Part shown: piece after piece, positions 7,601 through 64,000 of the stretch
Position numbering within the stretch: the stretch's first letter is position 1
How the letters are laid out: the number at the start of each line of letters is the position of its first letter
Assembly (NCBI GenBank): GCA_958009055.1
Contig: OY253661.1
Coordinates: forward strand, 372,001-436,000
Origin: Choricystis sp. odSpoLacu1
Taxonomy: Eukaryota > Chlorophyta > Trebouxiophyceae
DNA length: 64,000 nucleotides
Reading direction: 5' to 3'
The notes under the pieces: generated by a model
Told to the model about the DNA's origin: nothing
Database searches by the model: none
What the model saw: the letters and a program-made list of their open reading frames with translations, nothing else
Program-made: the position numbers and the translations under genes

Positions 7601-9780
7601 AAAGACGCCATCTCGCAGGCGGCGGGCGCTGCCGTCCATGCCAGCGTTGGACCTAGGGGAGGTTTGCGACTCCGCCGCGACCCCTGCGCGCCCCGCCTCG
7701 GCGCCTCCATCCCGCCAGGGCAGCGCCCCCACCCGCCGCACCATGGCGGGCATGACGCTGTCGGGCGACCTGGATGACGATGTGGCGGCCCTGGAGGCGG
7801 CGGAAGGGGGGGGGGGGGGGCGCGACGCCGCCTGCAGTCGTCCGTCCCCCGCCCGCCTCGCCCCGGCTGCCTCCGTTTGTGGGTGCTGTGGCAGACGCTC
7901 TGGGCCACGCGCTGGCAACAATGCTGGGCGGCGACCGCGCCCGAGGCGACGGCGGCGCCCCCGACGCGTGCGCCCTCTCGCGCTCGCCGCGCCGCACCCC
8001 CCCAAGCGTCGAGCTGGCGGCCGAACGCGGCGCCCGCACCCTGTACGCGGATGCAGCCATGCACGCTGCCTGCCTGGAGCTGGCGGTCGAGCTGGCTGCT
8101 GCTGATGCGGCGGCCCCGATGCCCGTCGCGGCTCCTGGTGCGCCGCCACGGTCGGCACGCGCGCTCGCGTCGCTCGTCGCGCACGCGTCCCACCCCGCCA
8201 ACGCGGCCGTGGTGGCGGCCGTGGCGGCGGCCGTTGCGTCCCGCCCGGCCTCCCGCCGCCTGCTGGCCCTGGTGTCGGCGCCGTTGTGGTCGGTTGCGCC
8301 CTACACCCCCTCCCGCCGCCTCGCCCACGGCGCGCACGGTGAAGTGGTGGCCGCGTCCCTGCCGTGGGACGGCACGCCCGCCATCGTCAAGATGGTGGGG
8401 GGGCCGGGCGGGGCGGGCCTGGCGCGCGCGGCGCGGGAGGCGGCCGCGCTGGCGGCTGCTGCCGCGCGCGGCGCGACTGTCGCCCCCTCTGCCTGCCCCA
8501 CCCTCGTCGCCGCGGGGGCTGCGCCCCTCACTCTCGCGTCGGGAGACGTGGGGGGCGCCCTCGTGCTGACGCCCCGGGCGGCGGCCAGCCTGGCGGCGTG
8601 GCGGAGGGGGCTGCCGGCGGGAGGCGCGGCCTCTGGGCAGCTCGTGCTGCACCTGCGCGCCTTTGCTGCAGTCGCGGACGCCGTGGCCCGCATGCACGCC
8701 GCCGGCGTCGCCCACGGCGACGTCACGTGCGACAATGTGCTGCTGGTGCCCCACCCGGCTGCCTGCTTGGTGGCGGGCGGAGAGGAGCGCGGCGGCGGCG
8801 ACGCGTGCGTCCCGCCCCCCGGCACCCCCTTCTGGCGCCCCCCCGCCCCCCACCCCCCGTTCGACGTGCTCATGGCCGACTTTGGGTGTGCCACCGTGTT
8901 TGACACCAGTGGGGGTGGGGAGAGGCCCCCTGGGCGGGTGGCGGCTGAAGCCTCGGACGTCGCGTGCCTGGGGGCCCTCCTGGTCCACCTGGTCACGGGC
9001 GCCCCCCTGGACGACGGCGCGGGGGCGCCCCACCCCACCACGACGGCGGCGGTGCCAGCATCTGTCCCCGCCAGCCGGGGGGGCAGGCGGCGCGCTGGTG
9101 GAGGGGCGGCGCCCGCGCCCCCTCCTCCCGACCCGCTGCCGCCGCGCCTGGCGGCCGCGGTGGCCGGCCGCGTCGGGGTCGCCCCCCTGCTGCGCGCCGC
9201 CCTCGCCCCCGACCCCGCCGCCCGCCCATCGGCAGCCGCCCTGGCGTCGGCAGCCCGGTCCGCGGCTGCTGCCGCGGAGAGGGGGGGGTGGGCGTACACG
9301 CTGCCGCCCCGAGTGAGCGGCGGCGGGGGTGGCGGGGGCGGCAGCAGTGCCACTGCCTCCCGCCCCTCCACCCGCCCGCCACCCCTGCCCCCCGCCCTGG
9401 CGGCCGCCCTGACGGCCCGTGTCGCGCCCATCACCCCCACCCTGGCCCTGGCCACCGCGCACGCGGCGACCGCGCCGCGCGCGCTCGCGTGTGCCGACTC
9501 TGTCGTTCTCATCGGCGCCGCCCCCGCCAACGCGGCGGCCGCCGCCGTGGCGGCAGCCGCCTCCGCGGCTGGCGCCACCATTGTGGCTGCCCCGTCCGCC
9601 GTCGATGGCGCGACCGCTGCCGCGTGCGGCGCGCGCGGCCGCGTCGTCGTCGTCGCGGCGCCCGGGGCGGAGCGTGTGGCGGCGGCGACTGCGGCAGCCC
9701 TGCTGACGAATGGGGGCATGTCTCCGCACGCTGCCTTGGCTGCGGTGGCGGCGGCAGCGCCGGGGATGCCGTTGTGGTGA
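4647..9780 (+). CDS. Giant Ala-rich protein with C-terminal protein-kinase-like domain (frame broken at G15)
   Basis: The start at 4647 (CCAATGG) opens a 75-codon exon, an 84-nt intron (4872-4955), then about 950 codons to a G15 run at 7806-7820. Past the run the protein continues one frame over to 9780; removing one G joins them into about 1,682 aa. The first 1,100 residues are Ala-rich and probably helical; I recognise no repeat family. The C-terminus is a kinase fold: Gly-rich AHGAHGEV near 1196, candidate Lys in AIVKM, catalytic-loop HGDVTCDN near 1329, MADFGCA near 1381, and SDVACLGALLVHLVTG as the helix-F region. The usual HRD Arg is Gly and the loop Lys is missing, so activity is uncertain. 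A Gly-rich linker and about 130 Ala-rich residues follow. No substrate can be inferred. Confidence 0.6.
7806..7820 (+). repeat. G15 homopolymer at a reading-frame break
   Basis: Fifteen consecutive G inside the kinase-like gene. The upstream frame encodes LDDDVAALEAAE and dies about 280 nt past the run; the frame one base over encodes the kinase-like domain. Fourteen G would give an uninterrupted protein. Confidence 0.85.
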
Positions 9781-10362
9781 GAGAGAGATAAGTTTTGATT
9801 TTGAAGTTTTTGATTCTAATTTTAAGTTTTGATTGCCTGCCTGTTGTGTTGCCCTGCCTGACGTTTCCGATCCCCTTTTTTTTTGTGCGCCACCACACAC
9901 ACACACGCACCAGAGTGAGGCGCGAACGCTTTGTTACACACTGTGGGAATAGACGCGGTGAAAAAAAGAAGCAACGGGGGAAGGAGGGGAGGGGGGACTG
10001 TCAACGTGGGGGTGGGGGTGGGTAAAGGACAATAAGGGGGAGCGGGGGGGGGAATCACACGGGCGTCAGTGCCTTGTTTTTCTCAACTCTCCAGTCTCTC
10101 TCTCTCTGTGGTGTGTGTGTGGCTTGGGCGGGGGGTGGGGGGAAAAGGTTGGGACACGCTCAAAAAGGGAGGGGGGGACCAAAATGAAGAAAAGGGGGGT
10201 GGACACGTACAGACACAGCAGGCGTGTGATGCCTCAAAATCGCTCGTGTGCCCGTGTGTGTGCGTGTCCGCCCGAAAAAAGTCGTTAAGGAAAAAAGGGA
10301 GACAGAGGGGTGGTGGTGGTGGTGGTGGTAAACAGACACAAGGGGAAGCAAACATCCATACT
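9781..10362. other. Convergent intergenic region without recognisable gene
   Basis: These 582 bp lie between the stop codons of the kinase-like gene and the CCT gene. They are less GC-rich than the genes, with T-rich patches near 9795-9835, A-runs near 9960 and 10275 and a GGT trinucleotide repeat at 10311-10329. They probably hold both 3' UTRs. I see no TGTAA signal and no RNA gene. Confidence 0.5.
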
Positions 10363-11780
10363 TCAATCCACCTTCATTGCCGCCGCCGCCGACACAAACC
10401 GGCCCTTGACCCGCGGCCGGCACGCAGCCTGCGCCTTGCGGGCGGCGTACGTGGGGGGCGCGCGCGCGGTGCCCGCGCGCGCGCGCGCGCGCGCTTGTCC
10501 CGCCAGCGCGCCAGCGCGGCGGCGCGCGAGGACGCGGGGCGGGCCAGGCCGGGAAGGCGCATCAACGGGAACTGGGATCCATCGCTGCCGCCGTCGGCCA
10601 GGGATGGCGTGGGCGGCGCCAGCGGCGCGCGCGGTGGCGCGGCCACGCGCGCGGCCGCTGCGCGCGCCACCGCCGCCGCCGCCATGACCGCCGCCGCCCG
10701 GGTGGCCAGCATGGAGGCAATTTCAGGTGGCACGGATGATACGGGCGCGGGATGGGACACGGCCGCGGCGGCGTGGGGGGCGGAGCCCGAGCCCGAGCCC
10801 GAGCCCGACGCGGGGCGGGGCGGCCGCTCGCGCCGCGCGTGGGGGGTGTCTGGCATCCCGCCCCCACTGCCGCCCGACCCCGATCCGCCGCCCCCCGTCG
10901 TGCCTCCACGCTCAGACGAGGACGCGGGCGGGCGGAACCCCGGGGACGCGCCGGAGCGGCCGCTGGAGAGGGAGCGCCCGCGCGGCGTGGTCCGTGCCGG
11001 CGCGCCGGCGTCCACGCCGCCGCACACGGAGCCGCCGTCGGGGTCGACAGGCCAGACAAAGCCAGTGAGGCCAGGCCAAATGAACGCGGGGCCGGCTGGG
11101 GGCGGGAGGCCGCCACCCACGCTGTTGCCGCCGCCCCCGCCGCCGCCGCCGCTGATGCCGCTGCCGCCGCCGCCCATGCCCCAGCGCAGGCCTTCAAGAC
11201 CCGACCCTGCAGACCAGGACGGCATGATGAGGGAGCAGTCGTCCTCGAACGGGAGGGCGGCCGCGGCGGCGGCGGGCGGCGGCGGGGTGGGGGCAGTGAC
11301 CAATGCTGGGGACGCGCCCCCGTGCCCCCCGCCCGCCTCCTTGGCCACGGGCCCGCTCCACGCGCCGTCGCGCGGGCGGCGGGGGGCTCGGCGGCCGCGG
11401 TCGTCGGACGAGAGGGAGGGAGGGGGGGGGGGGGAGGGGCGCGCGCGCCGCGCGGGCGCTGCCGCCGCCGCGCGCGGTCGTCGTTGGCCCTTTTCGCGCC
11501 CGGGAGGTGGGCGTCCGCCCGCCGCCAAGGGGCAGGGGGGCGCCCGACGGCGTGGCGGGCAGCAGGGAGGAGCCGTTGGAGGTGGCGCTGGAGTGTGAGG
11601 GTGGGTTGGTGAGGGTTGGGAGCCAAGCGAGAGAGAGCGCGTGGGCTGGCAAAAAGCAGGCCATGAGCCGGCGCGGGGGGGTGCCGCCCCGCACGCCGCG
11701 TGCGCTGAGCCTGCCACCCTTCCACCCCTCCCACATCACGCAGACCATTCTCGCGCGCCGCACCTGGGGTCGTCGATCAT
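10363..11780 (-). CDS. CCT-domain (CONSTANS/TOC1-type) regulatory protein, frame broken at two simple repeats
   Basis: The CCT motif marks plant regulators of light, clock and flowering responses. Near the C-terminus the frame reads SSRAAALARWRDKR, matching the first CCT helix (REAAL.R+R.KR). Downstream in another frame is TYAARKAQAACRPRVKGRFV, the highly conserved CCT end, followed by 8 residues and a stop at 10363. A (GC)10 repeat (10475-10494) lies between; nine units would join them with a longer Ala/Arg linker than usual. The N-terminus probably starts at 11780 (MIDDPRCGARE), with an intron 11745-11588. That exon is in the frame ATSNGSSLLP and needs a C13 run (11422-11434) shortened by one to continue into LSSDDRGRR and FEDDCSLIMPSWSAGSG. 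The middle is Gly/Pro/Ser low complexity. About 418 aa after both corrections. No B-box or response-regulator domain is visible. Confidence 0.6.
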
Positions 11781-12121: not shown

Positions 12122-13754
<1,633 letters not shown>

Positions 13755-13856
13755 CGTGAGAGGAGGGAGAGTGATGCAAACGTGGTGATTGTGACTTCAT
13801 TTTCATGAAAAAACGGCGGATACAACAAAAACAACCAGCTTGTTTCCCCTTCCAAC

Positions 13857-17224: not shown

Positions 17225-18560
<1,336 letters not shown>

Positions 18561-23197: not shown

Positions 23198-23344
23198 AAG
23201 AGATGAGAGATGAGAGACACGCAAAACGAGAGACCCCCCACGACCCCCCACATACCTTTTTCCAACTATGCAAAAACGAAAGAATGGCGTTGGATTTTTT
23301 GCACAATCCGTGAGATTGTCTTTTACACACCACTTTTTTTCTGA

Positions 23345-25381
23345 TCAGGCGAAGTTTTGTCCCCTCTCGTGCAACGGCGACAGCGCCAGCGGTGGCGGCG
23401 ACACCGGCCCGCCCCCACACGGCCTCCGTGTAGCACCATGCAGCGTCAGCACTGCTTGGCGCAGCTTGGCCGCGCCCTCGCGCGCGGCGCCGACGCGGCC
23501 GCGCCACGCGCCGCGCGCGGCGCCCGCCGCGCGCGCGAGCTCCAGGGCGCACGCCTCCCCCTCGGCCGCGGTCAGGGCGGCATCCAGGGCGGAGGCGGCG
23601 GCGGCCCGGGCGTCGGCGGCGTCGCCCGCGGCCGCGGTCAGCTGGTGGCGCAGCGCGGTGACGGCGGCCGGGGTGGAGGCAGCGGGCGGGGGGGAGGGCG
23701 GGGGGGGGGGGCGTGGCTGCCGGCTCGCGCACAGCAAGGGGCGGAGGCTGCGACAAAGTCACGGCCGCAGCCGTGGTCGCGGCGGCCAGCAGGGCGGTCA
23801 ACTGCGCGGCGCGCGCGTCGGCGGCGGCCGCCCGCGCGGTCGCGGCGGCCTGGGAGGCGGGGTGGGGAAGGAGAGGGGGTCGTGAGCACACCCCCAGCAC
23901 ACACTCTTTCTCTCTCGCTCTCCAACCACACGCACACACAGCAACTCACCACTGCCACCCTGCCGCCCTCCACTTCTTGCGCCAGTGCAACCGCGTCTGC
24001 GCGCGCGGCGGCTGCCGCGCCCGCGCGCGCTTCCGCCAACGCCGCCTCAGCGGCAGCCCGTTCGCTGGCGAGCGCCGCACGCCGGGAGCTGGCATCCAGG
24101 GCGCGCCGGGCGGCCGCCAGCCTAGCGTCGGCGGCCGCGCGCGCATCCCTGTCGACTGCTGCTGCCGCGCGCGCGGCCCCCGCTTCACGCCGCGCCGCCT
24201 CCGCGTCCCGCCGGGCGGCAGCCGCAGCAGCATTCGCTTCCCGCGTGTCCCTGGCTCGGCGGGCAGCCAGGTCGGCCGCGTCGGCGGCAGCCGCCTCGGC
24301 GGCCGCGGCTGCGCTCTCTGCGTCGCGCGCGCGCTCTGCCGCGGCCGCCAGCGCGGTGGCCAGGGCGGCCGCCTCGTCCCGGGCAGCGGACGCAGCTGCG
24401 TCAGCAAACTGCACGCGGGCAACCGCCACCGCGGCCGCCGCGACGTCGGCGGCGGCCGACGCGCCCGCTCGCGCACGCGCAGCGTCGCGAGCCGCGGCCA
24501 GCTCTCCCGCCGCCATCGTCAGAGACGCCACGACGTCGGCAGCGGTTGCCAGCGAGGCTCGAGCATCGGCTGCCCCCGCTCCAGCGGCAGCGGCAGCTGT
24601 GGCGGCCGCCTCTGCTTCCTCGCGCGCCGTCTGCGCGTCAACGCGTGCCGCCTCTGCCTCCGCGTCGGCGGCAGCCGCGGCACGCCGTGCGGCGTCAGCG
24701 CGTGTGGACGCGGTCGCCCGCTCCCGCTCAGCGGCCTGCAGGCGGGCGGCCAGGCGGGCGTTGTCAGAGCGCAGAGCGCGCACACGGGCGAGTGCGCGCG
24801 ACGCGACGGCGGCAGCGTCGGTGTCCACCGTGCGACGAGCGGTGCGGCTGGCTTCCTGCGCCTCCTCCTCACTCAGTCCCGCAAGTACGTCGGCAAAGTC
24901 GGCGGTGTCAAAGGACGGACCGTGCAGCAGCACGCGGCAGCGGGGGGGGATGACGACGGGGCGGCGAGACAGCACGGAGCGGGCTGCCAGCGGGGAGACG
25001 GAGGCAGACTGTGTGGTTGTGGGGTGGGTGGTGGGTGGGAAACGAGGGTGGTGTCAGAGGCGGGCGAAAGGGGACGCCGCATGCGCGGCGCGCCATTCGC
25101 AACGCTGCCCCCCGCCCCACGCCCTCCACGCCCCCATCCCCCCCGCATTCTCTCTCGTTCACACTCACAATACTGGCTGCCACCGCGGCCGCGTCTTCCC
25201 CGAAGCCACTGTCATAAGACGAGGCGGGAGACGGCGGCGCGTCGGCGCGCGCGCGCGCCGCTCCGCCGCGCGCGGCGGGGGACGCGGGCGACGCGCCCGC
25301 CCAGGGGGGAGGAGGCGGGCAGGACGCGTCCGCCGAGTCGTCGCGGGAGAGGGGGGCGGTGAAGAGGTCGGCCAGCTTCAT
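23345..25381 (-). CDS. Long Ala-rich coiled-coil protein, frame broken at C12
   Basis: I do not recognise a family. Start 25381 (MKLADLFTAPLSRDDSAD). Exons are 25381-25169, 25008-23950 and 23849-23345. Exon 2 is a continuous Ala/Arg/Glu helix with heptads (ARLQAAERERATASTRADAA and similar) for about 300 residues, typical of a rod-like coiled coil. Exon 3 begins AAATARAAAADARAAQLTALL and reaches a run of twelve G on the plus strand (23700-23711). One base fewer joins it to the frame ALRHQLTAAAGDAADAR, which stays helical and ends at 23345. About 591 aa after correction. The N-terminal 90 residues are acidic/Ser-rich and could be a regulatory head. Structural role (cytoskeleton, golgin-like) is only a guess. 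Confidence 0.5.
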
Positions 25382-25668: not shown

Positions 25669-27515
25669 ATGAAGGTAAACAGTGGCCACCAAGCGCAGCG
25701 AGGGCGAGGGGGAGTCGCGCTGGTTGGTCACCCATCGCGCCCGCACTGATGCGCGCAGTGTGCGGGGGGCGACGCGGGCACACGCCGAGACCAGCTGCCT
25801 GCATGCCACCCGCACACACGCTACCGTATGGGCACCGTCCCCGCCCGCGGCGGGGGACGGGGCACAGGGCGTGCGTGGGGGGGAGAAGAGGCACCCCGTG
25901 ATTGGCGACGGGCGCACCCCCCTTCGCTGTCCCCTCCTCACCCACCCCACCCACCCACACACTCGCACACCCTTCTAGGTCTCCGTCAAGTGGCAGAAAG
26001 AGTCGTACGACCTCGACCTCGACCCGTCCGCCCCCCCCTCCGTCTTCAAAGCCCAGTTGTTTGCCCTCACAGGCGTCCCCCCCGACCGCCAAAAGATCCC
26101 AGTCAAGGGCGGCCTCCTGCGCGACGACGGCGACTGGGGCGCCGCCGGCGTGACCGACGGCAAGAAACTGATGATGATGGGCACAGCGGACGCGGTGCCG
26201 ACGGCGCCGGAGGGGGGGGTCACGTTCATCGAAGACGCGCGCCGCGGCGGCGACCCGATGGACGAAGACGACGACGGGCCGGTCGGCCCCCCGCCCCACG
26301 GCGTGGGGCTTGTCAACCTGGGCAACACGTGCTACCTGGCGTCCACGCTGCAGTGTTTGTACAGGGGCGCGCCCGAGCTGCGCACCGCGCTGGCCTCCTA
26401 CGCCCCCCCCCCCGCCCTGGCCGACCCGGCCGCCCGCCTGGCTGCCTCCACTCGCTCCCTGTTTGCCACGCTGGGCGGGGCGGAGGAACCCGTGCGCCCG
26501 GACGGCGTGCTCGCGTCCCTCAGGGCGGCCCACCCCCAGTTTGCTCAAGCAGGCCCCGGCGGCATCCCCGCCCAACAGGATGCAGAGGAGTGCTGGTCCC
26601 AGCTGCTGTCGTCTTTGAAGGCGGCGTTGGGTGGCGGTGGCGGCGGCAGCGGTGGCCCCATCGACTCGTTGTTTGGCGTGGGCACGTCCGCCACCCTCAC
26701 CTGCGCCGAAACCCAGGAGACGCGCGTCGTCGACAACGCGTCCCTGGCCCTGCGCTGCGTCATCACGGGGGCGGTCAACCACGTGGGGGAGGGCATCGAA
26801 CTCGGGCTCAAGGAGGACCGTGAGATCTCTTCAGAGTCCCTCGGCCGCCCTGCCCTCTTCGAGGGCGCCTCCACCATCACCCACGCCCCGCCCTACCTCA
26901 CCGTGCAGCTGGTGCGCTTCTTTTACAAAGCGTCGTCCCAGCAAAAAGCCAAGATTCTGAGGAAGGTGGCCTTTCCGTTGACGCTGGATGTTTATGATTG
27001 GTGCTCCCCCACCCTCAAAGCCCAGCTGGACGGCCCCCGGGCTGCCGCGGCGGAGGCGGCTGCTGCTGCTGCGACGGCGGGGAGGGGGGGCACGGTCAAG
27101 GAGGGGGAGCAGGAGAAGGACAAGGAGGGTGGCGAGGAAGGCAAGGAAGCGGAGGCGCCCGCGCCCAACCCCGCCCCCACGCCCGCTGGCCCGTCCCAGC
27201 ACGCCGACCAACCCACGGGACGCTACACCCTGACCGCGGTGCTGACCCACAAGGGCCGGTCCGCGGATTCGGGCCACTACGTGGCCTGGGCCGCGGCCGA
27301 CGCGCCCCCCCCCCGCCGTCGACGGCACCACCGCCCCTGCCACCGCCCCTGCTGGTAAGCCCGTCAAGCTGCCCCCCCCCGGCAAAGCCCCCTGGATCCA
27401 GTACGACGACGACGACGCCGTCGAGCGCACGGCAGAGGATGTGCTGGCTCTCTCGGGGGGAGGCGACTGGCACATGGCCTACCTCCTCCTCTACCGCGCC
27501 GAGGTGGCCTCCTGA
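25669..27515 (+). CDS. UBP6: Ubiquitin-specific protease UBP6/USP14 (proteasome-associated), frame broken at C10
   Basis: Deubiquitinase bound to the 26S proteasome through an N-terminal ubiquitin-like domain. Exon 1 is only ATGAAG (25669-25674); after a 304-nt intron, exon 2 begins at 25979 with VSVKWQKESYDLDLD. The UBL (VFKAQLFALTGVPPDRQKI, KLMMMGTAD) is followed by the Cys box GLVNLGNTCYLASTLQCL near residue 118 and the Asp/Glu-rich QQDAEECW. The His box is SADSGHYVAWA. A C10 run at 27305-27314 then breaks the frame; with nine C it reads VDGTTAPATAPAG and ends with DVLALSGGGDWHMAYLLLYR, the expected catalytic-domain end, stopping at 27515. About 513 aa. Intron 1 carries an inverted CCAAT at 25901. 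Confidence 0.9.
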
Positions 27516-27748: not shown

Positions 27749-30060
27749 TCATGCCTCCGCCGTCTTCTTCTTCTTCGAGTCGAGCGACGGCAACCCCTTG
27801 GCCTCCGTCTTCTTCTCCTCCTTCTCCTTCACCTCCTCCTCGGCCGGCAGGTCCAGGGCGGCCGCCTTCACGTGCGCCCGCAGCGCGGTGATGACGTCGG
27901 CTTCCGGGCACCCCGCGTCCCGGAACTTGGCGGTGGCAGCATCCAGCGGCCCGCGCCACTCCTCCTCTTTCGCGCCCGTCGCCGCCCGCATCTGGCTCTG
28001 TTCATACAGCGCGTTGCCCCACATGACGATGATGTTGGCCCAGGGGCCCGCATCCTCGGGGGCGCCCCCGTCAGCGGGCGGGGGGGGCTGCTTCTTGCCG
28101 CGGTCGGCGGCCGGGACGGCCGCCTCTGCCTTTTCAAACGTCGACCACGCCTTCTTGAAGTACCCCTCCGCCGCTTTCACATCCGCCGGCGTCAGCGCCG
28201 CCATGGCGGCGTGCAGGGTCGCGTTGGCGGCGGCCGCGGCCGCCGCGTCGCGGGCAGGGCCGTCGGCGGGGGCGTCACCGCCAAGCGGTGTGGCAGGCGG
28301 CACCGCCAGCCCCGCCGCCGCCTTGCCCCGCTCAAACTCCAGGTTGGCGCGCGCCGCCAGCACGTCGTGGTGACCCGGGGTCAGGCGGTCGGCGTCACCG
28401 TATTTGGCGTCGGCGCGGGAGAAGGCTTTGTCGACTGCGCTCTTGACGCTCTTGTCCTTGGCGCCCGCCGCCCATTTCTCCCCCGCCACCGCCCGCGACA
28501 GCGTGCGCACGCCCAGCTGCACCAGCGCGTTGCCCGCCTGGACGAGGGAAGCGGCGGCGCCTTCAGTGAACTTGTCGGCGGCCGCGTCGAAAAGAGGGGC
28601 TGCCTCGCCGCACGTCGTGGCGGCGTCCAGCGCGGCCTGCACCTTGTCCCACGCCACCCCCTGCACGTCCAGGGGGCGGTCGGCGTCGACGCCCAGCTTG
28701 TCGCGGAACAGGGCGGCGAAGTCGAGCATCCAGGCGTCGAGGTCGGCGGCAGAGGCGGTGGCGGCGGGGGCGGCCGTCCCGTTGGCCGCGTCGTTGGCTG
28801 CCAGCACCTCCCTCAGCTTGTCCAGCTGGGCCGCGCGCGCCGCCATGGCGGCCTGCAGGGCGGCCGCCTCGTCGGCGGGGGGGGGGGGGCACGTCGGCCT
28901 CGGACGCGACGGAGACGGCGGCGAGGCGCAGGCCGCCGCCGCGCGCGCGGGCGAGCGCGGAGGCGACATCACCCCGCGACCCCAGCGCCACACCCGCCCC
29001 CGCCTCCAGCTTGAACGGCCAGGCGGCGGGGGCGCGCGCCTTGACGGCGGCCAGCAGCTCAGCGTAGGTGGCGCCCGGGTGGAGGGCGAGGGGTTCGAGG
29101 GCGGAGCCGTCGGGGAGGGTGACCGTCGTTGTCACCGCGCGCTGCTGCTGCTGCTGCTGCTGCTGTGCCGCGGCGGGAGCGACCGCGCCGTTGGCACCAC
29201 CAGCCCCGGGTCTGCGCCCCACCATGTCTTTGAGGCGGCGCTCCGCTTCAGCGAGTTCGGCGGATGATGGATCCGCGCGCGCCGCGCGCGCCGCGTCCGC
29301 GGCCGCCGCCTTCAGCTGGCCCAGCCCCTCCTTGGCGCGCGCCCGTCTGAACAGGGCGACCGCGTGGTTGGGCACGGCCTCCAGGGCGGCGTCGCACTCG
29401 TTGGCGGCTTCGCGGTGGCGGCCGGTGAGCAGGAAGGCGCCCGCGCGCGCGGCGCGCAGGGCGGCGACCGCGGACGGCGCGTCCGCGGTTTTGAGGGCGG
29501 CTTCGTAGGCGGTTAGGGCTTTGGAGAACTGCGGAGGGAGGGGGAGGGAGGTGTGAGGGTGAGGGGGCAGAGCCTGACTTGGCGCGAGGAGGGAGCCGCC
29601 GTCGACGTGGTGTCTTCGCTCGAGTGGCGTCGCAAGAGCGGCAGCGTCCCCTCTCTCTGACGGCTCTCCCCTCCTCGCTCCCTCCCATAACGCGCATTCA
29701 AAGCTTCGGCACACGCTGGTGCAGCGAGAGCGGTCAGCGCGGCCCAGGGGGTGGCAGGAAAGCTCGCGCATTCTCTCGCACCCGCTGTTCGAGGTCCCCT
29801 CCCTCCCCCTTCTCACCTCCTTCTTGGCAAAGTGGGCGTCGCCCTCGGCCTTCATCTTCTCGGCGTCAGTGACCTGTGGGGGTGGAGAGAGGGGGTGGGA
29901 GTGAGTGGAGGGAGGCAGCGTTCGCGCCCGTCGGCCAACGAGCTGGCCACCGCCATCCCGTGCGGTGCACAGACCCCCGACACACGACACTCACCGGCGC
30001 CGCCACCGTCGGAGATGCCAGGGGCGGACGAGCCGGCTTGCGAGCTTTCTTGGTGGACAT
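27749..30060 (-). CDS. TPR-PB1 co-chaperone-like protein of the CLMP1/Phox family, frame broken at C13
   Basis: Plant Phox/CLMP1 proteins pair three TPRs with a PB1 domain; CLMP1 is needed for chloroplast separation. Exons are 30060-29995, 29873-29817 and 29528-27749. The TPR block starts with DAEKMKAEGDAHFAKKE in exon 2 and continues [33 protein letters not shown] and NHAVALFRRARAKEGLG. Then come Q8, a PB1-like VTLPDGSALEPLALHPGATYAELL and a C13 run (28877-28889). Shortening that by one joins ASEADVPPPP to ADEAAALQAAM and the family C-terminus DLDAWMLDFAALFRDKLGVD and AAPLFDAAADKFTEGAAASL. The tail is a charged Lys/Glu stretch. About 633 aa after correction. The family match is strong in layout; plastid function is inferred. 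Confidence 0.75.
29141..29164 (-). repeat. (CAG)8 coding for Q8 between TPR and PB1 regions
   Basis: Eight glutamine codons in the reading frame of the TPR-PB1 gene; trinucleotide repeat, likely length-variable. Confidence 0.85.
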
Positions 30061-35197: not shown

Positions 35198-36873
35198 ATG
35201 CGCGCCCCCACCGCGTTCCAGGCGCGCCCCCACCCCCCGCGCGCCGGTCTGCACCCGCCCACGCGCAGGCACCCGGCGCCCCCTGCCGCCTCCTCCTCCT
35301 CCCCCCACGACGCGCCTCAGCCGCGCGTGACACCCATGCCACCATCTGCGGGTGATGGCGGCACGCCGATGACGCTGACCGCGTTGATGAGTGCCGCGTC
35401 CCTGCCGCCGCTCGCGCGGCCATCCACCGCGACGGGCCCCGCGGTCGTCGTGTTCTCGGGGGGCACCGCGTTCAACACGGTGGCAGGTGAGAGAAGATGG
35501 GAGAGAGAGAGAGGTTGGTGTTGTGGGGAGTCGCGTATCGACAAACAAAAAACCATCATTCCTCTCCCCCCACCCTCTCTCTCTCCCCACCAGGCCGCCT
35601 CTCCCGCTTCACCACCAACGTGACCCACGTCCTCCCCGTCTCCGATGACGGCGGCTCCACCGCCGAGATTGTGCGCGTGCTGGGCGGCCCCGCCATAGGC
35701 GACATCCGGTCGCGTTGCCTGCGCCTGGCGGACACCACCGACCCTGAAGCCGCCGCCGTGGCCGCCCTACTGGGGCACAGGTTGCCTGGGACGGGAGCGG
35801 CCGCTGCCAGAGCAGAGTGGGATGCTGTGCTGGATGGAACACACAGTTTGTGGGGGGGCGTCTCCGACCCCTACAAACACGTCATCCGCGCCTTCCTCGT
35901 CCACTTCCACGCCCAGGTGCTGCTGGCGGGTGGTGACGCGTCCCCCAGTGGCGACGGCAGTGGCCTCCCCGACCCCGCCCGCGCGAGGTTTAATTTCGCG
36001 GGCGGCTCTGTCGGCAATTTTTTCTTTGCCGGCGCGCGCACCTTCTTCCGCTCCCTGGAAGCCGCCGCCTTCCTCTTCTGCCGCGTGGCTCGCGCTCCGG
36101 AGGGTGCCGCCGTCCTGCCCGCCGTGGCGACGGAGGGGCGGCTGACCCTGGGCGCGTTGCTGGAGGATGGGTCCGTGGTGGTCGGCCAAAACGAAATCTC
36201 GCACCCCCCCCCCGCCGCCTCCCCCGATCGGGCCGCCGTCGACAAAGCGGCGGCTGGGTCGGTCAACGCGCCCCTGCCGTCTGCTGTGGCCCGCGTGTTT
36301 TATGCGCCCGCTGACGCTGCTGTCGGCGCGCACGGCGCGACACTAGCTGAAGCCGCCCCCGCCGCCAACCCGCGCGTCCTCACCGCCCTGGCCCGCGCTG
36401 ACGCAGTCGTGTACGGCATGGGGTCGCTGTACACGAGTGTGGTGCCGTCGCTGATCCTGCCGGGGGTGGGGGAGGCGGTGGCCAAAGTGCGCGGCGCCAA
36501 GATTCTTCTCCTCAACGGCGGCCCCGACCGCGAGACGGCACGCGCGCCGACGGGAGGCAAGAGTGGGGACGACTCTTCACCCCGCCCCATGACCGCGTCC
36601 GACGTTGTCGCCGCCGTCGTGGCCGCCCTGCGGCGCGAGCCCGCGCGCGGCGCCGCCGCCACGTGCGACGCCTCCAACTACGTCACCGCCGTCCTGGCGC
36701 CCGCGGGCGGGGGCGTGGAGCTTGACACCGACGCGCTGGCGGCCATGGGCATCCACCGGGCGGCCGTCGTGGCCAGTCGGAGTGGGGGAGGGGGAGGAGG
36801 AGTCGTTTATGATGCTGACGCCCTGGTCGACGCGGTGGCCGCCGAAGTGGCGGCAGCAGCGGTGGGCGCGTGA
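35198..36873 (+). CDS. CofD/YvcK-family protein
   Basis: The family includes 2-phospho-lactate transferase CofD and the UDP-sugar-binding regulator YvcK; the plant/algal members have no settled function. Exon 1 (35198-35486) encodes a Pro/Arg-rich transit-like leader and the first strand AVVVFSGGTAFNTVAG, the phosphate-binding GGT loop. Exon 2 (35594-36873) has VTHVLPVSDDGGSTAEIVRVLGG and IGDIRSRCLRLAD, which form the family's catalytic/nucleotide pocket. It then has FNFAGGSVGNFFFAGAR and GMGSLYTSVVPSLILPGVGEAV. 522 aa. Phase 1 at the single intron. A C10 run at 36204-36213 is in frame, a useful control for the broken runs elsewhere. The C-terminal 60 residues are Ala/Gly-rich. Confidence 0.82.
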
Positions 36874-40577: not shown

Positions 40578-42102
40578 TCACTCTCCCCCCCCCCGCGCTC
40601 GCCACCAGGCAGCCGCTGCATCCGCTGCGTCAGCCGTCACGTTCAACAACGGATGCACACTCACCACCCGGTTCCCCCCCCCCCCCCACCACGCTGCCAC
40701 CCGCCGCCTGGGCCACTGACAGCCCGGACAAGCAGTAGCAGGTGTGGTACAGGTCGGGCGGTTTGCCGGGCTTGTCGCGCAGGCCGCCCGCGGGGGCCTG
40801 GCAGCAGGCCAGGATCCAGTGCTGCAGGGCGGCCGGGTCGAAACTGGCGGTCAGGGGGGTGGCGTCAACGCCGGGAGGGCAGCCCAGCAACGCTTCTCCC
40901 ACGGACGCCACGTCAGCCGCGAGGGCCGCCTCCTCGGCGGCCGGCGTCGCGTCGGCGTCGCTCGCCGCGCGCGCGGCCGCATCGTCAGCCGCCACCAGCG
41001 CTCGCTCCAGAGGTCCGGGCACACCCCCCGCAGGCAGAGGCGGTGGCAGGGGCAACGGCGGCGCGGCGCCGGGGGGCAGGGAGCGTGGGGCAAGGCCGGC
41101 CGCTGCGCCGGGGGGAGGCAGCGCGCCCGTCGGCGCGAGCACTCCCCACAGGCCCCCCACCCAGAACGAGTAGCAGCCGTCCACCAGCTTGGACGTGCGC
41201 CCCGCAAACCCGCCCACGGAAGGGGACTGCAGCTGGCCCGCCCAGAGGGCCACGCGGCGCGCGTCCAGAGGGGGAGGGGAGGTGGTGCCGTCGTCTCCTC
41301 CTCCCAACAACCCACACAGCGCGGCCGCGGCGGCGCCGCAGAACGCGTACCCGCCGTGCGATTCATTGTGGGGGGCACCGCCTAACCCGCCTTCTGGGGC
41401 GACCGCTGCCGCCAGGGCGGGCGCGAGGCGGCCGCGCGTGGCAAGCGCAGACACGTCCCCGCCAAGCAGAGTGACGACGGCAGCCGCCGTGTAGCACCCC
41501 CGCACGTCAGCCTCCCCACCCTTGCACACGCGGAAGCCGCCGGCGGGGGCGTCGGGGGCGTCGGGAGGGACGGCGCAGCGAGTGATGAAGGCGAGGGTGG
41601 CGGGTGCATCGATCGAGGCGAGCGCGTCGTCGCCCCCCAGCGTGGTCAACGCCGCCACCGCCGCATACGTGGGGGCCAGGTGGGGGGGGGCGCCCGGGGA
41701 GCCGCCGTAGCCGCCGGTGGGGTGGGCGCAGGAGGCGAGGTAGGCGATGCAGTCGGTGCGCAGGGCTGTGGTGTGGGGGGGGTGGGGAGGAGGTGAGAAG
41801 AAAAAAGGCGAACGAAAGCGACGTTGTCTCCTCAACCTCTCTCACTAACCTGCTGCCGTGTCCGCATCCTCATGCAGCGGCTCCCCCAACACCGCCAGCG
41901 AGTGCAGGCCCCAGTACAGGAGCCAGGGGGTGGAGGCGGCGAGAGGGGCGTAGGCGGGGGAAAAGGAGGAGAGCGCGCGCCGCGCAAAGGCGGCGTGCGC
42001 GTGGCGCGCCAGAGGTGGAGGAGGCGAGGGATCAACGGGTGGCTCCCCTAAGTGCCTCAGGAGGCGGGCGTCCAGGTCGGCCTGGGCCGCGGCGGTGGAC
42101 AT
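40578..42102 (-). CDS. FTB: Protein farnesyltransferase beta subunit, C-terminus shifted at C14
   Basis: Catalytic subunit that attaches farnesyl to CaaX proteins. Exon 1 (42102-41850) has STPWLLYWGLHSLAVLGEPL; exon 2 starts at 41765 with ALRTDCIAYLASCAHPTGGYGG. The zinc ligands are visible: Asp and Cys in SKLVDGCYSFWVGG and His in DLYHTCYCLSGLSVAQ; GGFAGRTSK and GGLRDKPGK line the pocket. As written, the frame passes a C14 run (40674-40687) and stops at 40630 with an unrelated tail. With one base fewer it continues NRVVSVHPLLNVTADAADAAAAWW, matching the HPL.NV end of plant FTB. The exact stop after that is uncertain (40578 if the next C10 run, 40585-40594, is also one too long; 40556 if not). 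Divergent from CURT1. Confidence 0.88.
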
Positions 42103-55964: not shown

Positions 55965-57804
55965 ATGTGCAAGGCCACCGTCCCCCCCCCCCGGACCGGC
56001 CTGCTGGCAACCCTGCTCGACTTGGCGGCCGAATGGAATAACGTGGCTGCCGACACGGTGACGACACAGAAAAAGCGCGCGACCGCGCCACCACCGCCGC
56101 CGCGCGCGGACGGCAAGCTGACGCTGGCCCACGTGGCGCAGCACCACACGGAAGGGGATGCCTGGGTGGCGGTCAAGGGCAAGGCGAGTGTGCGGGAGAG
56201 TGGGCGAGGGGGCGGGGAGGGGCGCCAATGTGAGTGGACGCAGAACGCGCGCGCGGCGCGTGGACGCGCCACGCGCCAGCCCACACTGTGGGCCACCCCC
56301 GGGACACCAGTCGAGCACTGGCCATGGAGTGGGGGCGGTGGTGGGCGCGATGGCGAGGCCAGCCGCCGGGGCACTGGGAGGCAAGGAGGAAGACGAAAAA
56401 AACGACGCCGTCGTCGGCGTCGCCGCAACCCCGCCCAAAAAGCACACACTCACCCCCCCACACACACACCCACACACGCACACAACCCTTCAGGTCTACG
56501 ACGTCTCCACCTTCATCGACGCCCACCCGGGCGGCCGCGTCCTGCTGGCGTACGCGGGCAAGGACGCGACCGACGCGTTCTCCGCGTTTCATGCGCCCGC
56601 CACGTGGTCCTTCCTCAAACGCTTCGCTGTCGGCGACCTCGTCGAGTCCGACGCCGCCCCACCCGCCGGCACCCTGATGGCCGACTACCGCGCGCTGCGG
56701 GCGCGCCTGCTGGCGAGGGGGGCGTTCAAGTCGTCCCTCCCTTACTACGCCTTCAAACTCGCGTCCACTGCAGCCCTCGCCGCCACCTCGCTCGCCGTCC
56801 TGCGCGCTGCGAGCGCAGTGGGGTCCACCGCCGCCACCCTCGCCCTCGCCTTTGCGTCCGCCGCCGTCATGGGCCTGTTTTGGCAGCAGAGCGGGTGGCT
56901 TGCCCACGACTTTTGCCACCAGCAAGTGTTTGCCAACCGCAAGGTCAACCGGGGGGTGGCCCTGATGGTGGGCAACGTGTGGCAAGGGTTCAGCGGTGAG
57001 TTGGTGTGGTTGGGAGGGAGGAGAGGGTGGTGGGTGTCGACCCTCGCAAAAAAAAAAAAAACTCACTCACACCACCCCACACCACCCCTCCCAGTCGCCT
57101 GGTGGAAGCACAAGCACGACCAACACCACGCATGCCCCAACGAACTCGACGGTGACACCGCCACCCCCCTCGACCCCGACATCGACACCCTGCCCCTCCT
57201 CGCCTGGTCCCCCGCCCAGCTGGCCGCCTCCCGCGGCCCTCGGTCCCTCCTCCGGTCGCAGCACCACTACTTTGTGCCGTTGCTGCTGGCGGCCCGCCTG
57301 GCGTGGGCGCAGCAGTCGGTGGCGGTGGCGGTCGATTTGCTGCGGTCGCCCACAACGCGCGTCTGTGGCGTGATCGAAACGGGAGGCCTCGCCCTCCACT
57401 ACGCGTGGACGGTGGGCGCCCCCATTGCCGCCCTCGGCCTCGCCGGCGGCCTGGCCCACGCTCTGACCGCTCAACTGGTGGCAGGGCTGTACCTGGCGCT
57501 TGTCTTTGTCCAGTCGCACAACGGCATGGAGGTCTACTCCTCCGTCCTCGACTGGATGACCGCCCAAGCCGTGTCCACTCGCGACGTCGTCTCCACCCCC
57601 TGGACCGACTGGTTCACGGGGGGCTTGAACTACCAGCTGGAGCACCACGCGTTCCCCGGACTGCCGCGCCACGCTCTGGGCAGCATCGCGGACGACGTCA
57701 AGCAGCTGTGCGAAAAGCATGGCCTCGCCTATGAATCGGTGACGATGCCGGTGGCCACCAGCCGGGTGCTGCAGCACCTGGCGGACGTGGCGGCGCTGGC
57801 GTGA
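55965..57804 (+). CDS. Front-end fatty-acid (or sphingolipid) desaturase with N-terminal cytochrome b5
   Basis: ER desaturase that inserts a double bond between an existing one and the carboxyl end. Exons 55965-56183, 56494-56995 and 57095-57804 give 476 aa. The cytochrome b5 domain spans the first junction: KLTLAHVAQHHTEGDAWVAVKGK then VYDVSTFIDAHPGGRVLLAYAG with heme-binding HPGG. Three His boxes: HDFCHQQ, HKHDQHH (HxxHH-type) and QLEHHAFP; Gln in the last box is diagnostic for front-end enzymes. Four hydrophobic segments are present. The first intron uses a GC donor (AAG|GCGAGT). A C11 run at 55982 is in frame. Delta-5, 6, 8 or sphingolipid delta-8 specificity cannot be read from sequence. 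Intron 1 has a CCAAT at 56225. Confidence 0.9.
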
Positions 57805-58072: not shown

Positions 58073-61000
58073 CTACGCCTTGGCCAGCACCGTCTTCTGC
58101 AGCGCCGCCGCAAATTCGGCGTAGCTGGGGCCGGCCGAGGACCGGTCCTCCACAAAGAAGGGCGCCACGTGCGCTTCAGCCGGCGTCCCCGCCTGCACCA
58201 CAAACAACGGCGGCCGGTTGGCCCGCCCCCGCCGCAGCGCCTCCAGCACGGCGCACACGCGGGCGGATGCGTCCGACCCCGGGCGCACGGGTTCGGGGGT
58301 GAGGGCCATCACATCAGCAGGCGGCCTGGCAGCATCCACCCCAAACACGCCGGCCATGAAGTCGGGCCGCACCGCCCGCCCCAGCCACAGCACCAGGACG
58401 CGACCCGCGTCGATGAGGTAGGCGCCCGCCGAGTCGAGGGCGGCGGCGGCTAAGGGCGCCGGAGCGGGCAGCAGGACTGCACCATCGCCACGGGGGCGCC
58501 CCCAGTCGCCTGCCGGGTCGTGCAACGGCAGGGCGGTGGGATACAGCATGCGCAGCAGGCCGGGCACGGAGGCCGCCATGGCGTCGTGGGCCACGGCGGC
58601 GCGCTCGTCGGGGGCCACGTCGCGCGCGCCTCCGCGCAGGGCGGCCAGCTTGGTGGCGCCCAGCGCCCAGAGCGGCAGGCAGCGCAGGTTGGTGGGGACG
58701 AGGAGGGCGGTGTGTGGGGGGGCGCCCCTGCCTCCCGCGGCGAGGGCGAGGCGGTATTCGCGCAGGGCGAGGCCGACCTTGTGCGCGAGCGCGGCGCGCG
58801 TTTCGTCGAGGCGGGCCCCATATGCTTTTTCGACAGCGAGTTTGGCGAGCAAGGCGGCGGTGGCCCCTCCATCCACCGCGCGGTACAGGTCGGCCAGGTC
58901 GGGGACGACAGGGACGGCCAGGGTGTGGACGCGGATGCGGCGCTCGCCACAGGACGCGGTGTAGAGCAGGGCGCACTGCATGTAAGCGGTGGGGCCGGGG
59001 ACGACGCCCTCCTCGTGCGCGATCTGCACGGCGAAGGCTTTGTCGGGGTCGACCTGAGAGGGAGGGGAGGGGAGGAAGAGGTGTGTGAGCAACGCAGCGC
59101 GGACGAAAAACGGCACCGGATTTTTGTTTAACCCACCCTCCCAAACACGCACCTGGGGCAGCGCCAACAAATCGGTCGACCGCACAAAAAAGTGGCCGTG
59201 AAACGCGGAGATGCGCAGGCCCTTGGAGCAGCGAATCCGCATCACTGCCTCCCACCCCGTGGGCCGTGAGATGTTGTGCTCAATCTCGGCCGCCAACCGC
59301 GCGCCGTCCCGCGCCGCCGCAAACCCGGGGTAGTAGTACAGCTGGCCGCACGTGTACTTGGGCAGGGCGCCGAGCGAGGCGAGGTCGATGGGGCCGGCGG
59401 GGCAGGCGAATACGTCCACAGCGACCTGGGCGCGCGACGCTTCGGCCGCGTACTTTTTCCAAAACGGGTCGTCCGGGGCGCGCGTCTTGGCTTCCGCGTC
59501 GGTGCCCCACCCGGCCGCCGGGTCGCGGGGGGCGCCCGCTTTCAGCTTGCCCGCGCCCCGGGTGGGGGGGGAGGCGGCAAAGAGGAGGAGCTTGCCGCCG
59601 GTGGGCGCGAGAATCATGTAGGCCGCCTGCAGGGCAGCGCCCGGGGCCGCGTCCGGGGGGGCGGCACCCCCACCTCCCGCCGCGGCCACGGCGGCGGCGG
59701 CAGTCGACGGCAGGGCGTCCAGCGCGGCGTCCAGCAGGTGACGCGCGTCGGCCGCCGTCGCCAACAGATCGTCGGGCAGCGGGACAAACGGGTCGTCCAC
59801 GTCGGGGACGACGACCATGGAGGGGGAGGAGGCGGCGGGTTTCAGAGGGTAAAAGTGGAGGGTGGCGTCGTAGGTGAGGAGGCCGACCTGGGCGCGCCCG
59901 TCGCCGGGGAGCGTGTCGAGCGCGCGGCGAACCGCGGCCGCCGCTGTGGCCACCATGCCCGACGCGACGGCGGGGGGGGACACGTCGATAACGAAGAAGT
60001 AGGCGGGGGGCATGGGGGGGCGCACCATGTATTCAGCGGGCGCGACCTGTAGGTTGGTGAGTGGAGGAGGGAGGTTGGAAAAAAACGGCGACCGAAACGA
60101 AAAAACCCAACAAAAAACATTTTCTCTCCCCAAAACTACTCACATACTCCACGCTGCCCCCCGCCAGCTCCGGCCTCTCCGCCACGTCCAACCGCTTGCC
60201 CGCGCCATCCAGGCCGCAGTAGTATTCCACGGGCACATCGTTCAAACAGGCGCACACATTGCACGCAAACCGCCGCCCCCCATCCGCCCACGTGACAAAC
60301 GGGTTGATGTAGGTGCGGCACCGCCTGCACCGCACGATGCCGGCCTGGGTGAGGGGGACGACGGGGACGTCGTCCTGGGGGTCGGCCATTGGGTGCACGA
60401 TCGCGCCCACGGGAAGTTGAAACCGCGCCCGTGTCGCCTGCTGCGCTGGAATCGCGTTCACCGTCAACCGCATGAAGCGTGGGTCGCACGACCCCGGGAC
60501 AGGGGGAGTCGGCATGGCGCCCGCGGTGGCAGCCGCGTCGCCCGCGGGGCGGGGAAAGGTGGAGGGGTCACCCCCCGGTGCGCCCGGGCCCGCGGGGGCC
60601 AGGGAGATGGCGTCTGGGGCGTCGAGGACACCAGCGCCACCGGCGTACGCTCCCGGCGCGCCGTAGGGAGGGGGCGGCCCGCCGGGCGGGGGTGGGGGGC
60701 CGCCGTAGACGGGCGGCCCGGGTGGCGCGCCAAACGAGGGGGGGGGGCGGCGCGGGGGCGCCGTAGGACGGTGGGGCGGGGGCGCCGGGCGGCGGCGCGC
60801 CATAGCCGGGCGGCGGCGGGGGCGGGCCGCCAAAGGAGGGGGGGGGCGGCGGGGCGCGGCGCGCTCAACCCGCCGGGCGTGGCCGGCGGCGGCGGCGCGC
60901 CGTACCCAGGCGGTCCCGGCGGCGGCGGCGCGCCGTACCCAGGCGGTCCCGGCGGCGGCGGCGTGCCATAGGCGGGCGGCGCCTGCTGTACCCCCATGGG

Positions 61001-62047: not shown

Positions 62048-62319
62048 TGGGGGATGGGTCGCGACGCGGTGGAGAGCCCGCGGTCGGGAGAGGGCGCGTG
62101 GGGGAAGGAGGTGTGAGCGAAAGAGGCGGTTTGTGGTTGTCGAGGGGTCAGTGTCGGGCGGTGCTGACAACCAAGCCCCAAGCCTTTGTCTCTCTCGACG
62201 TTCGTGGCGCAACGCTTCTTCGTTCCTGATCGATAAATCTTTTCTTTTCACCTTGTCCGCTCCCTCCCTCCCCCCCCGTCCCCTCTGCCCGCTCCAACCT
62301 CGATCCACACATCACTACT
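62048..62319. promoter_or_regulatory. Divergent promoter region (SEC24 / starch synthase)
   Basis: 272 bp between starts with an AT-rich patch GATCGATAAATCTTTTCTTTTC near 62228-62249 (only key bases given) and pyrimidine runs before 62320; no coding sequence. Confidence 0.45.
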
Positions 62320-64000
62320 ATGCTCACCAGCCGCGTTGTGACCGCCAACCGGGCGGCAGGCCGCGCCCCCGCGCGCACGCCGGCGCGCGCACACCGCGCC
62401 TCGCCCCCCACTCGCGTCAGCGCTGCTGCCGGCCCGCCCCGCGCCGCGCCGCCAACCACCCCCTCCGACACGCCCTCCACCGAGGCCACCACCCCGCCCG
62501 CCCGCCCCTCCGTCGCGGGCCCCATGCCCATCGTCTGGATCTCCACCGAGGTCGCAGGCTGGGCGTCCACGGGCGGCCTCGGCCAAGTGTCGGCCGAACT
62601 GCCGCGCGAGCTCGCGCGCCGCGGCCACCGCGTCATGACGATCGCGCCCCGCTGGGACCAGTACGCGGACGCGTGGGACACGGCCGTGAGTGTTGATGTT
62701 GGCGGCGAAACTGTTCGCTTTTTCCACACGAAGCGCAGTGGCGTGGATCACGTGTGGGTTGACAGCCCCATCTTCCTGGAGCGCGTGTGGGGCAAGACGG
62801 GGAGCAAGCTGTACGGTCCCACGTCGGGGACGGACTACCCGGACAGCCACGCGGCGTTTGCCCTGTTCTGCCGCGCCGCGCTCGCCGCCATCAACTCCCT
62901 CCCCTTCTCCCCCGCGTCGGGCGCCCCTGGCGCGCGCCAACCCTTCGCCATCGTGGCCAACGACTGGCACGCGGCCCTGGTGCCCGTGCTGATCAAGGAC
63001 GAGGAAGTGCCGGCGGGAAGGTTCACCAACGCGCGCACCGTGCTGGTCGCCCACAACGCGTCCTTCCAAGGCCGCGCCCCCGCCCCCTACTTCTCCGCCA
63101 CCGGCCTGCCCCAGTCCTCGTTTGACCGGTTCGCGTTCGAGGACGGCGACCCGCGCGCCCCCGGGGGTCCCGACCCGGGCCCCACCCCCCCCCGGCGCGC
63201 GCTTCGCCAAGGTCAACTGGCTGAAAGCGGGCGCGAGCGCGGCCGATCGCGTGGTCACGGTGTCGCCCGCGTACGCTGCCGAACTCACGTCCGGCCCCAA
63301 GGGCGGTGTCGAACTGGACGGCGCGTTCCTGGCGGCGGGCGTGGAGGGGATCGCGAACGGTCTCGACACGGCGGTGTGGTCGCCGTCGACATCCCCCCAC
63401 ATCGCGCTACGACGCGTCGAGCGTGACGTCCGGCAAGGCCGCCGCCAAGGCCGCGCTCCAAGCCGAACTCGGGCTGGCCGTCGACCCGGCCGCCCCCCTG
63501 GTCGGCGTCGTGTCCCGCCTGGAGGAGCAGAAAGGGATCGACCTCCTGCTGGCCGCCGCCCCCGCCCTCGCGGCGGCGGGCGTGCAGCTCGCCATCCTGG
63601 GCACGGGGAAACCCGTCCTGGAGGCGGGGCTGGAAGCCCTGACCGCCGCCCACCCTGGCGCCGCCGCGGGCATCGTCCGGTTCGATACCCCCCTCGCCCA
63701 CCGCATCTTTGCGGGGGCTGATATCGTGGCCGTCCCGTCCCGCTTCGAACCATGCGGCATCGTCCAGATGCAGGCGCTCTCGTTTGGCGCAGTGCCCGTG
63801 GTCGCGTCGGTTGGTGGCCTCATCGACACCGTGAAAGAGGGAGTCACGGGCTTCCATGTGGGCAAGTTTGAATCAGATGAAGAAGCGTCGCCCGCGGACG
63901 TGGAGGCGCTGACGTCGACCCTGCTGCGCGCGGCGGCTGCCGTCGGCACGCCCGCGCACGACGCGCTGCGTGCCAAAGCGATCGCGACTGAAGTGTCGTG
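62320..64000 (+). CDS. GBSS1: Granule-bound-type starch synthase (GT5), frame broken twice, C-terminus outside window
   Basis: Transfers glucose from ADP-glucose to amylose in plastid starch granules. A transit region (residues 1-65, Arg/Ala/Pro) precedes [20 protein letters not shown] near 70-90. The usual KTGGL lysine is Ser. GBSS-type stretches follow: [50 protein letters not shown], and [12 protein letters not shown]9 run (63185-63193) and a C6 run (63393-63398) break the frame; removing one base from each joins [22 protein letters not shown] to [21 protein letters not shown] and on to [10 protein letters not shown]. The catalytic [15 protein letters not shown] and GGLIDTV motifs are intact. 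About 560 codons are inside the window. GBSS is favoured over soluble SS by the KTGSKLYGP region. Confidence 0.88.
63185..63193 (+). repeat. C9 run at first frame break of starch synthase
   Basis: Nine C after PGPT; the next frame continues [11 protein letters not shown], a conserved GT5 strand. Eight C restores it. Confidence 0.8.

What the first reader, a model, noticed from the sequence alone, without database searches (positions are those of the whole stretch)
7806..63398. At least ten frame breaks sit on C/G homopolymers and all need exactly one base fewer
Sites: G15 7806-7820, G13 11422-11434 (C13 in sense), G12 23700-23711, C10 27305-27314, G13 28877-28889, C14 40674-40687, G10 60738-60747, G9 60838-60846, C9 63185-63193 and C6 63393-63398. 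In each case the upstream and downstream frames encode halves of the same protein, and deleting one base joins them. Random mutation would give both signs. A uniform +1 suggests homopolymer over-calling in the consensus. In-frame controls of similar length exist (C10 at 36204-36213, C11 at 55982-55992), so the error is frequent but not universal.
Basis: partly seen in the sequence, partly recalled or inferred. Interest (0 to 1): 0.85.

Follow-up and report, generated by a model that had tools for sequence, protein, structure and literature searches.

The report
Sequencing overcounts of C/G repeats
In a genome that matches the published assembly of a sponge-dwelling green alga, some genes switch reading frame at long runs of C, G or CG as if one repeat unit too many had been written, most likely because the sequencing consensus over-counts these runs, so many genes in this reference would look broken when they are not.

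Summary
All ten runs are in the sequence. Four breaks are shown by homology (27305, 28877, 63185, 63393), four by codon statistics (7806, 23700, 60738, 60838), one is probable (40674) and one weak (11422); each comes out net +1. A codon-model decoder blind to homopolymers, run on 264 kb of the same genome, found 14 of 14 breaks near C/G runs of 8 or more to be +1, and break rate climbs with run length (2/49 at 8, 4/21 at 9, 8/13 at 10 or more). A spiked-indel control gave no wrong-sign call. Contig sizes match ucChoSpea1.1, the Choricystis cobiont of Spongilla lacustris: 16x PacBio HiFi, hifiasm, no short-read polishing described. Best explanation: systematic one-unit over-calling of C/G tandem runs. 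Recoding, introns and true mutation fit poorly. A few breaks do not sit on long runs. Mapping the specimen's own Illumina Hi-C and RNA-seq reads would settle it.

The parts
7806..7820 (+). G15 run; net +1 frame break in an unnamed plus-strand gene (decoder places it at 7876)
   Evidence: codon model: phase 0 before (26.7), phase 1 after (16.4)
10474..10494 (-).
   Evidence: kept when the emission tables leave the window out and at one of four settings, lost at the other three
11422..11434 (-). G13 (C13 in sense); break weakly supported
   Evidence: no or marginal coding signal upstream
23700..23711 (-). G12 (C12 in sense); net +1 break in a protein without relatives found
   Evidence: codon model, phases 2 to 1; homology search empty
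25979..27512 (+). USP14/Ubp6-type ubiquitin hydrolase gene
   Evidence: Pfam UCH and ubiquitin, relatives, decoder extent
27305..27314 (+). C10 run; net +1 break inside the UCH domain
   Evidence: 8 of 8 relatives tested split here; codon model
27753..29534 (-). CLMP1-like (TPR/PB1) gene
   Evidence: relatives P0122-P0135, tblastn, decoder extent
28877..28889 (-). G13 (C13 in sense); net +1 break
   Evidence: P0123 (90% identical over the matched half, other assembly) and P0124 keep one frame; P0123 has 4 codons (12 nt) where the window has 13 C
40674..40687 (-). C14 (G14 in sense) near the 3' end of a farnesyltransferase beta gene (40633-41841 reading frame); probable net +1 break
   Evidence: negative
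60738..60747 (-). G10 (C10 in sense); net +1 break in the low-complexity N-terminal part of Sec24
   Evidence: codon model, phases 0 to 2
60838..60846 (-). G9 (C9 in sense); net +1 break in the same Sec24 gene
   Evidence: codon model, phases 1 to 0
62274..64000 (+). granule-bound-type starch synthase gene (runs off the window)
   Evidence: Pfam GT5/GT1 pieces, PDB starch synthases
63185..63193 (+). C9 run; net +1 break
   Evidence: GT5 domain continues from phase 1 to phase 2
63393..63398 (+). C6 run; net +1 break at or near it
   Evidence: 3vue chain matched to residue 298 in phase 2 and from residue 296 in phase 0
36204..36213 (+). C10 run in frame (control)
   Evidence: no phase change
26403..26413 (+). 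C11 run in frame inside the USP14-type gene (control)
   Evidence: matches of relatives cross it in one frame

Best explanation
The frame breaks are most likely consensus errors: this apparently HiFi-based assembly likely writes one repeat unit too many at many long C/G mononucleotide runs (+1 nt) and CG dinucleotide runs (+2 nt). Shown here: the net shifts, their dependence on run length and unit, and intact frames in relatives of two of the genes. Inferred: that circular-consensus reads of this 70% GC genome over-count such runs often enough that the read majority at about 16x is wrong, that hifiasm copies the read sequence into the contig, and that nothing corrects it because the methods read describe no short-read polishing and the quality value (51.1) apparently rests on the same reads. 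In the cell the genes are predicted to be intact.
For: Blind decoder: 14 of 14 breaks near C/G runs of 8+ are +1; over eight cost settings, five give 14 or 15, all +1, the strictest gives 12 +1 and 1 -1 (two +1 breaks of Sec24 merged), and two give 1 and 0 because the path leaves coding instead of shifting. Rate against length in decoded coding sequence: 2/259 at 6, 3/90 at 7, 2/49 at 8, 4/21 at 9, 3/5 at 10, 1/2 at 11, 4/6 at 12+. CG runs of 12+ nt: 7 of 19 break, all net +2; runs of 8-11: 4 of 215. Spiked control without sign error. Homology only, other loci: four C9/C10 runs with short-gap splits, 4 of 4 net +1; two plain CG runs net +2; one mixed stretch net +2. Broken genes include tRNA synthetases, TCP1-family chaperonins and Sec24, which a haploid cell could hardly lack (established knowledge). 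Relatives intact at 27305 and 28877. HiFi reads are known to miscount homopolymers and, systematically and often in several reads at once, microsatellite units (PMC7545148 passages); [quoted passage not shown]
Against: No raw reads could be examined. No paper found gives the direction of HiFi errors at C/G runs (searches, a partial library), so the uniform sign is observed, not explained; it is also odd that runs of 12-15 show +1 only and never +2. Some breaks are not on long runs: the C6 at 63393; a kinase on C16 (+1, GC-rich but no run of 6 or more); an HSP70 on C1 (-1, apparently one C missing); and 7 of 30 decoder events lie in neither class, all +1, with one or two further -1 events of that kind at other settings. 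At CG runs of 8-11 nt three rows (two events) are net +1, which would be a lost unit.
Confidence: 0.92

Rival explanations
1. The extra units are real and the cell recodes: ribosomes slip +1 on CCC-C or GGG-G (or RNA polymerase drops one repeat unit) and restore the frame.
For: Uniform +1 is what natural +1 frameshifting shows (recalled); C and G runs are slippery; essential genes are affected.
Against: CG runs need +2, not +1, so one ribosomal mechanism does not serve both; many runs of the same length are in frame; relatives of two genes lack the shift; sense C and sense G runs break alike within small numbers (11/56 and 3/27, Fisher p = 0.53).
Confidence: 0.04
2. Real mutations: slippage has broken these genes in the alga.
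For: Slippage rates rise with run length (established knowledge).
Against: Both signs would be expected; 16 breaks at mono- or dinucleotide runs in the 200 kb outside the window, with housekeeping genes hit elsewhere, would hardly be survived by a haploid.
Confidence: 0.02
3. Strain mixture or unresolved haplotypes in the sponge sample, with the assembly taking one length at random.
For: An alternate-haplotype assembly was deposited.
Against: Sign would be mixed and functional alleles would dominate (inference).
Confidence: 0.02
4. Short introns mistaken for frame breaks.
For: The genome has intron-like gaps of about 70-125 nt between domain pieces.
Against: At 27305 the gap between the matched stretches of one relative is 22 nt, and for a TCP1-family gene on C12 it is 11 nt; the shift tracks the repeat unit.
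Confidence: 0.01

Closest known systems
PacBio HiFi homopolymer-length error
   Same: Miscounted homopolymers are the main residual error (PMC7545148 passages; 92% of CCS errors as stated in PMC12007338 passages)
   Different: Here the C/G cases near runs of 8+ are all over-counts by one; direction not found in print in six searches
HiFi microsatellite unit-count error
   Same: The HiCanu authors report systematic wrong unit counts often backed by several reads
   Different: Here seen for CG units, as one unit extra, in coding sequence
Gene-fragmenting errors of long-read assemblies (Kastor and similar)
   Same: Indels split genes of otherwise good assemblies
   Different: The main P. syringae case there has about twice as many deletions as insertions (passage); here insertions at runs
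+1 ribosomal frameshifting (recalled)
   Same: Uniform +1
   Different: Companion +2 at CG runs; not shared by relatives of two genes

Membership tests
HiFi consensus repeat-count error | Error rate rises with run length | tested here: met
   2/49, 4/21, 8/13 for runs of 8, 9, 10+
HiFi consensus repeat-count error | Also affects short tandem repeats by whole units | tested here: met
   CG runs of 12+: 7 of 19, all net +2; homology cases L024, L025
HiFi consensus repeat-count error | Assembly made from HiFi reads without short-read polishing | tested here: met
HiFi consensus repeat-count error | Independent reads show a different run length | not testable with these tools
   no reads held; a 90% identical relative has 12 nt where the window has 13
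Programmed or tolerated +1 frameshifting | One constant shift (+1) at all sites | tested here: not met
   CG runs give +2
Programmed or tolerated +1 frameshifting | Conserved shift site in relatives | tested here: not met
   relatives in one frame at 27305 and 28877; other sites not tested
Spliceosomal introns | Room for an intron between the two pieces | tested here: not met
   gaps of 11-22 nt

The most novel reading that the evidence does not exclude
The alga really carries one surplus repeat unit in hundreds of C/G and CG tracts and removes one unit at the RNA or ribosome level, a genome-wide unit-wise recoding of low-complexity tracts.
Probability: 0.03. Interest if true: 0.95.

Novelty: not a real feature. 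Interest (0 to 1): 0.27.

Why it matters
If right, this reference carries very roughly a thousand false frame breaks (8 at C/G runs of 8+ and 8 at CG runs in the 200 kb outside the window, scaled to 14.6 Mb; my inference from small counts), about 80 per Mb, which would put it near QV 41 rather than the stated 51. A quality value taken from the same reads cannot see a shared error. Gene models, pseudogene counts and completeness scores of GC-rich HiFi-only genomes would need checking at C/G and CG runs. The sign and unit rule gives a simple screen that needs no extra reads.

Tried and rejected
Medakamo hakoo was considered as the source and rejected (15.8 Mb, RS II reads). Homology for the 23700 gene found nothing. 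The C-terminal piece of the farnesyltransferase gene found nothing alone. Rfam on the window: nothing. An outside high-GC control (a Streptomyces plasmid) was not in the collection and was not replaced; the spiked control covers sign bias only, at runs of 5-7 deep inside decoded genes. Literature searches for the direction of HiFi errors at C/G runs gave nothing usable; (alga, GC, homopolymer) listed nothing. Decoder costs: with the first entry cost (7), frameshift costs of 14 and 17 make nearly all or all breaks vanish because the path steps out to noncoding instead (3 events left and 0); with higher entry costs they return. The training without the window still used labels that the joint model had given the other stretches. 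Homology splits: I took same-strand, differing-frame pieces less than 50 nt apart from seven family searches, read by eye from the tables: nine splits; one further pair on C6 near 877080 was dropped because one piece held two stop codons and overlapped its neighbour in the profile, and two close pairs on C8 share one frame and are no breaks. Those searches score only the best candidates (122 of 156 kinase and 20 of 95 AAA candidates). Table: 1353 runs of 5+ not fully inside decoded coding sequence and 27 at edges were left out; the G15 at 7806 counts there as 'no change' because the decoder sets the break 56 nt further on. Table: 59 runs outside coding, 7 at edges and 9 within 30 nt of a C/G run of 8+ were left out.
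Full report
What was checked. All ten runs are present at the coordinates given. The window is bases 372001-436000 of contig 13 of a 14.59 Mb genome in 19 contigs, about 70% GC. Gene content is eukaryotic and green-algal: a USP14-type hydrolase whose best named hits are from Elliptochloris, Auxenochlorella and Coccomyxa, behind unnamed metagenome proteins, farnesyltransferase beta, Sec24, starch synthase, xanthine dehydrogenase-type domains.

Source. The lengths of the nine contigs I saw (C1 1515297, C2 1428307, C3 1265114, C5 1219714, C6 996781, C12 684245, C13 675008, C15 450352, C16 432618) agree, rounded as printed in Mb, with the chromosomes of ucChoSpea1.1, the Choricystis sp. cobiont of the sponge Spongilla lacustris, as does GC (68.5-70%). 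That assembly used Sequel II HiFi reads at 16x, hifiasm 0.16.1 and Hi-C scaffolding; the methods describe no short-read polishing; QV 51.1, BUSCO complete 88.4% and missing 10.0% (PMC12141999, sections 6 and 9). The BUSCO figure is weak evidence, since another ultrasmall trebouxiophyte, Medakamo hakoo, scored 89.5% (passages).

Site by site. For each run the codon-model score of all three frames was taken on both flanks. 27305: phase 2 (27.1) to 0 (37.7). 63185: 1 (28.0) to 2 (31.1). 63393: 2 (24.7) to 0 (32.7). 7806: 0 (26.7) to 1 (16.4). 23700: 2 (22.5) to 1 (32.7). 28877: 2 (31.3) to 1 (37.5). 60838: 1 (31.0) to 0 (18.0). 60738: 0 (18.0) to 2 (24.7). 40674: 0 (29.0) to 2 (-0.5). 11422: 0 (4.5) to 2 (13.0), weak. 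All are net +1. Homology agrees where it can be had. In the USP14-type gene, 8 of 8 relatives tested switch frame between 27304 and 27321 at the closest. In the CLMP1-like gene, P0124 and P0123 (90% identical over the matched half), from other assemblies, are continuous proteins across the site that match in one frame down to base 28890 and in the other from 28819 or 28822 on; P0123 reads four codons where the window has 13 C. In the starch synthase the GT5 domain runs through phase 1 (profile 2-193) into phase 2 (199-236), and the GT1 domain follows in phase 0; the same nine PDB starch and glycogen synthases are matched by the first two pieces and are the nine best matches of the third.

A blind test on more of the genome. 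A coding/noncoding hidden Markov model with free frameshift moves, trained on the window plus twenty 10 kb stretches taken at round coordinates on three other chromosomes, knows nothing of homopolymers. It reported 30 frame breaks: 21 net +1 and 9 net -1. Near C/G runs of 8 or more: 14, all +1. With emission tables that leave the window out it returns the same nine breaks in the window, to within 10 nt. In decoded coding sequence the share of C/G runs with a break is 14/854 at length 5 (10 +1, 4 -1), 2/259 at 6, 3/90 at 7 (2 +1, 1 -1), 2/49 at 8, 4/21 at 9, 3/5 at 10, 1/2 at 11, 4/6 at 12 or more; A/T runs of 5-7: 1 of 78. Without the window, runs of 9 or more break 6 of 23 times. A control in which single bases were added to or removed from runs of 5-7 recovered 231 of 244 insertions and 260 of 267 deletions and never gave the wrong sign, so the lack of -1 breaks is not a blind spot.

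The wider rule. Eight of the nine net -1 breaks sit beside CG or GC dinucleotide runs of 12-20 nt; with runs sought slightly further out all nine do. In coding sequence CG runs of 12 or more nt break 7 of 19 times, always net +2 (equivalently -1), while runs of 8-11 nt break 4 of 215 times: three rows net +1, two of them neighbours that share one event, and one net +2 row that belongs to the event of a longer run beside it. A surplus of one CG unit explains +2, just as a surplus C explains +1. Six of the nine decoder events of this class remain at three of the four settings; the one in the window, at 10511, is among those lost there.

Homology without the codon model. Seven Pfam families were sought in the whole genome. 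Nine same-strand splits with a changed frame and less than 50 nt between pieces were read: C10 in a kinase, C9 in a tRNA synthetase, C10 in a TCP1-family chaperonin and C9 in an SNF2 protein, all +1; CG runs in a second synthetase and a second TCP1-family gene, both +2; a mixed C8/CG/C8 stretch in the SNF2 protein, +2. Two do not fit: a kinase on C16 (+1, GC-rich but no long run) and an HSP70 on C1 (-1, apparently one C missing).

Reading. A shift that depends on the repeat unit, grows with run length, adds rather than removes, strikes essential genes, and is absent in the relatives of the two genes tested is what over-counting of repeats in the consensus predicts. Ascertainment alone cannot make the sign: symmetric errors would leave about equal numbers of -1 breaks at shorter observed runs, and there is one net -1 among 398 C/G runs of 6-8, itself beside a CG run. 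[quoted passage not shown] The direction of the bias in C/G runs I did not find in print; that over-counting happens in the reads rather than in the assembler is inferred.

Scale. 6086 C/G runs of 9 or more lie in the genome; the sample of 264 kb holds 101 against 110 expected. Sixteen breaks at mono- or dinucleotide runs in the 200 kb outside the window (8 and 8) scale to about 1200 per genome; this rests on small counts and on decoded coding sequence only.

Noticed in passing
   Followed up: yes
L027 (C1:1348330-1348550): HSP70 gene with a net -1 break that makes a TGA, apparently one C missing and not at a long run; the one clear deletion seen.
   Followed up: partly
L021 (C16:421380-421620): Kinase gene with a net +1 break in a GC-rich stretch without a long run.
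   Followed up: partly
P0123, residues 276-329 (window 28005-28166): The 90% identical relative from another assembly has its own frame break, apparently +1 and not on a long run, where the window is in frame.
   Followed up: partly
window 60057-60142: Sec24 changes frame between its zinc finger and trunk domains over an 86 nt gap that looks like an intron, not a run error; several domain splits elsewhere have gaps of 70-125 nt.
   Followed up: partly
window 21309-23210: A cytochrome P450 split into at least two pieces about 200 nt apart, likely by an intron.
   Followed up: no
window 55349-55372 and 51930-51951: C24 and T22 runs in probably noncoding sequence, where an over-count could not be seen by frame.
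   Followed up: no
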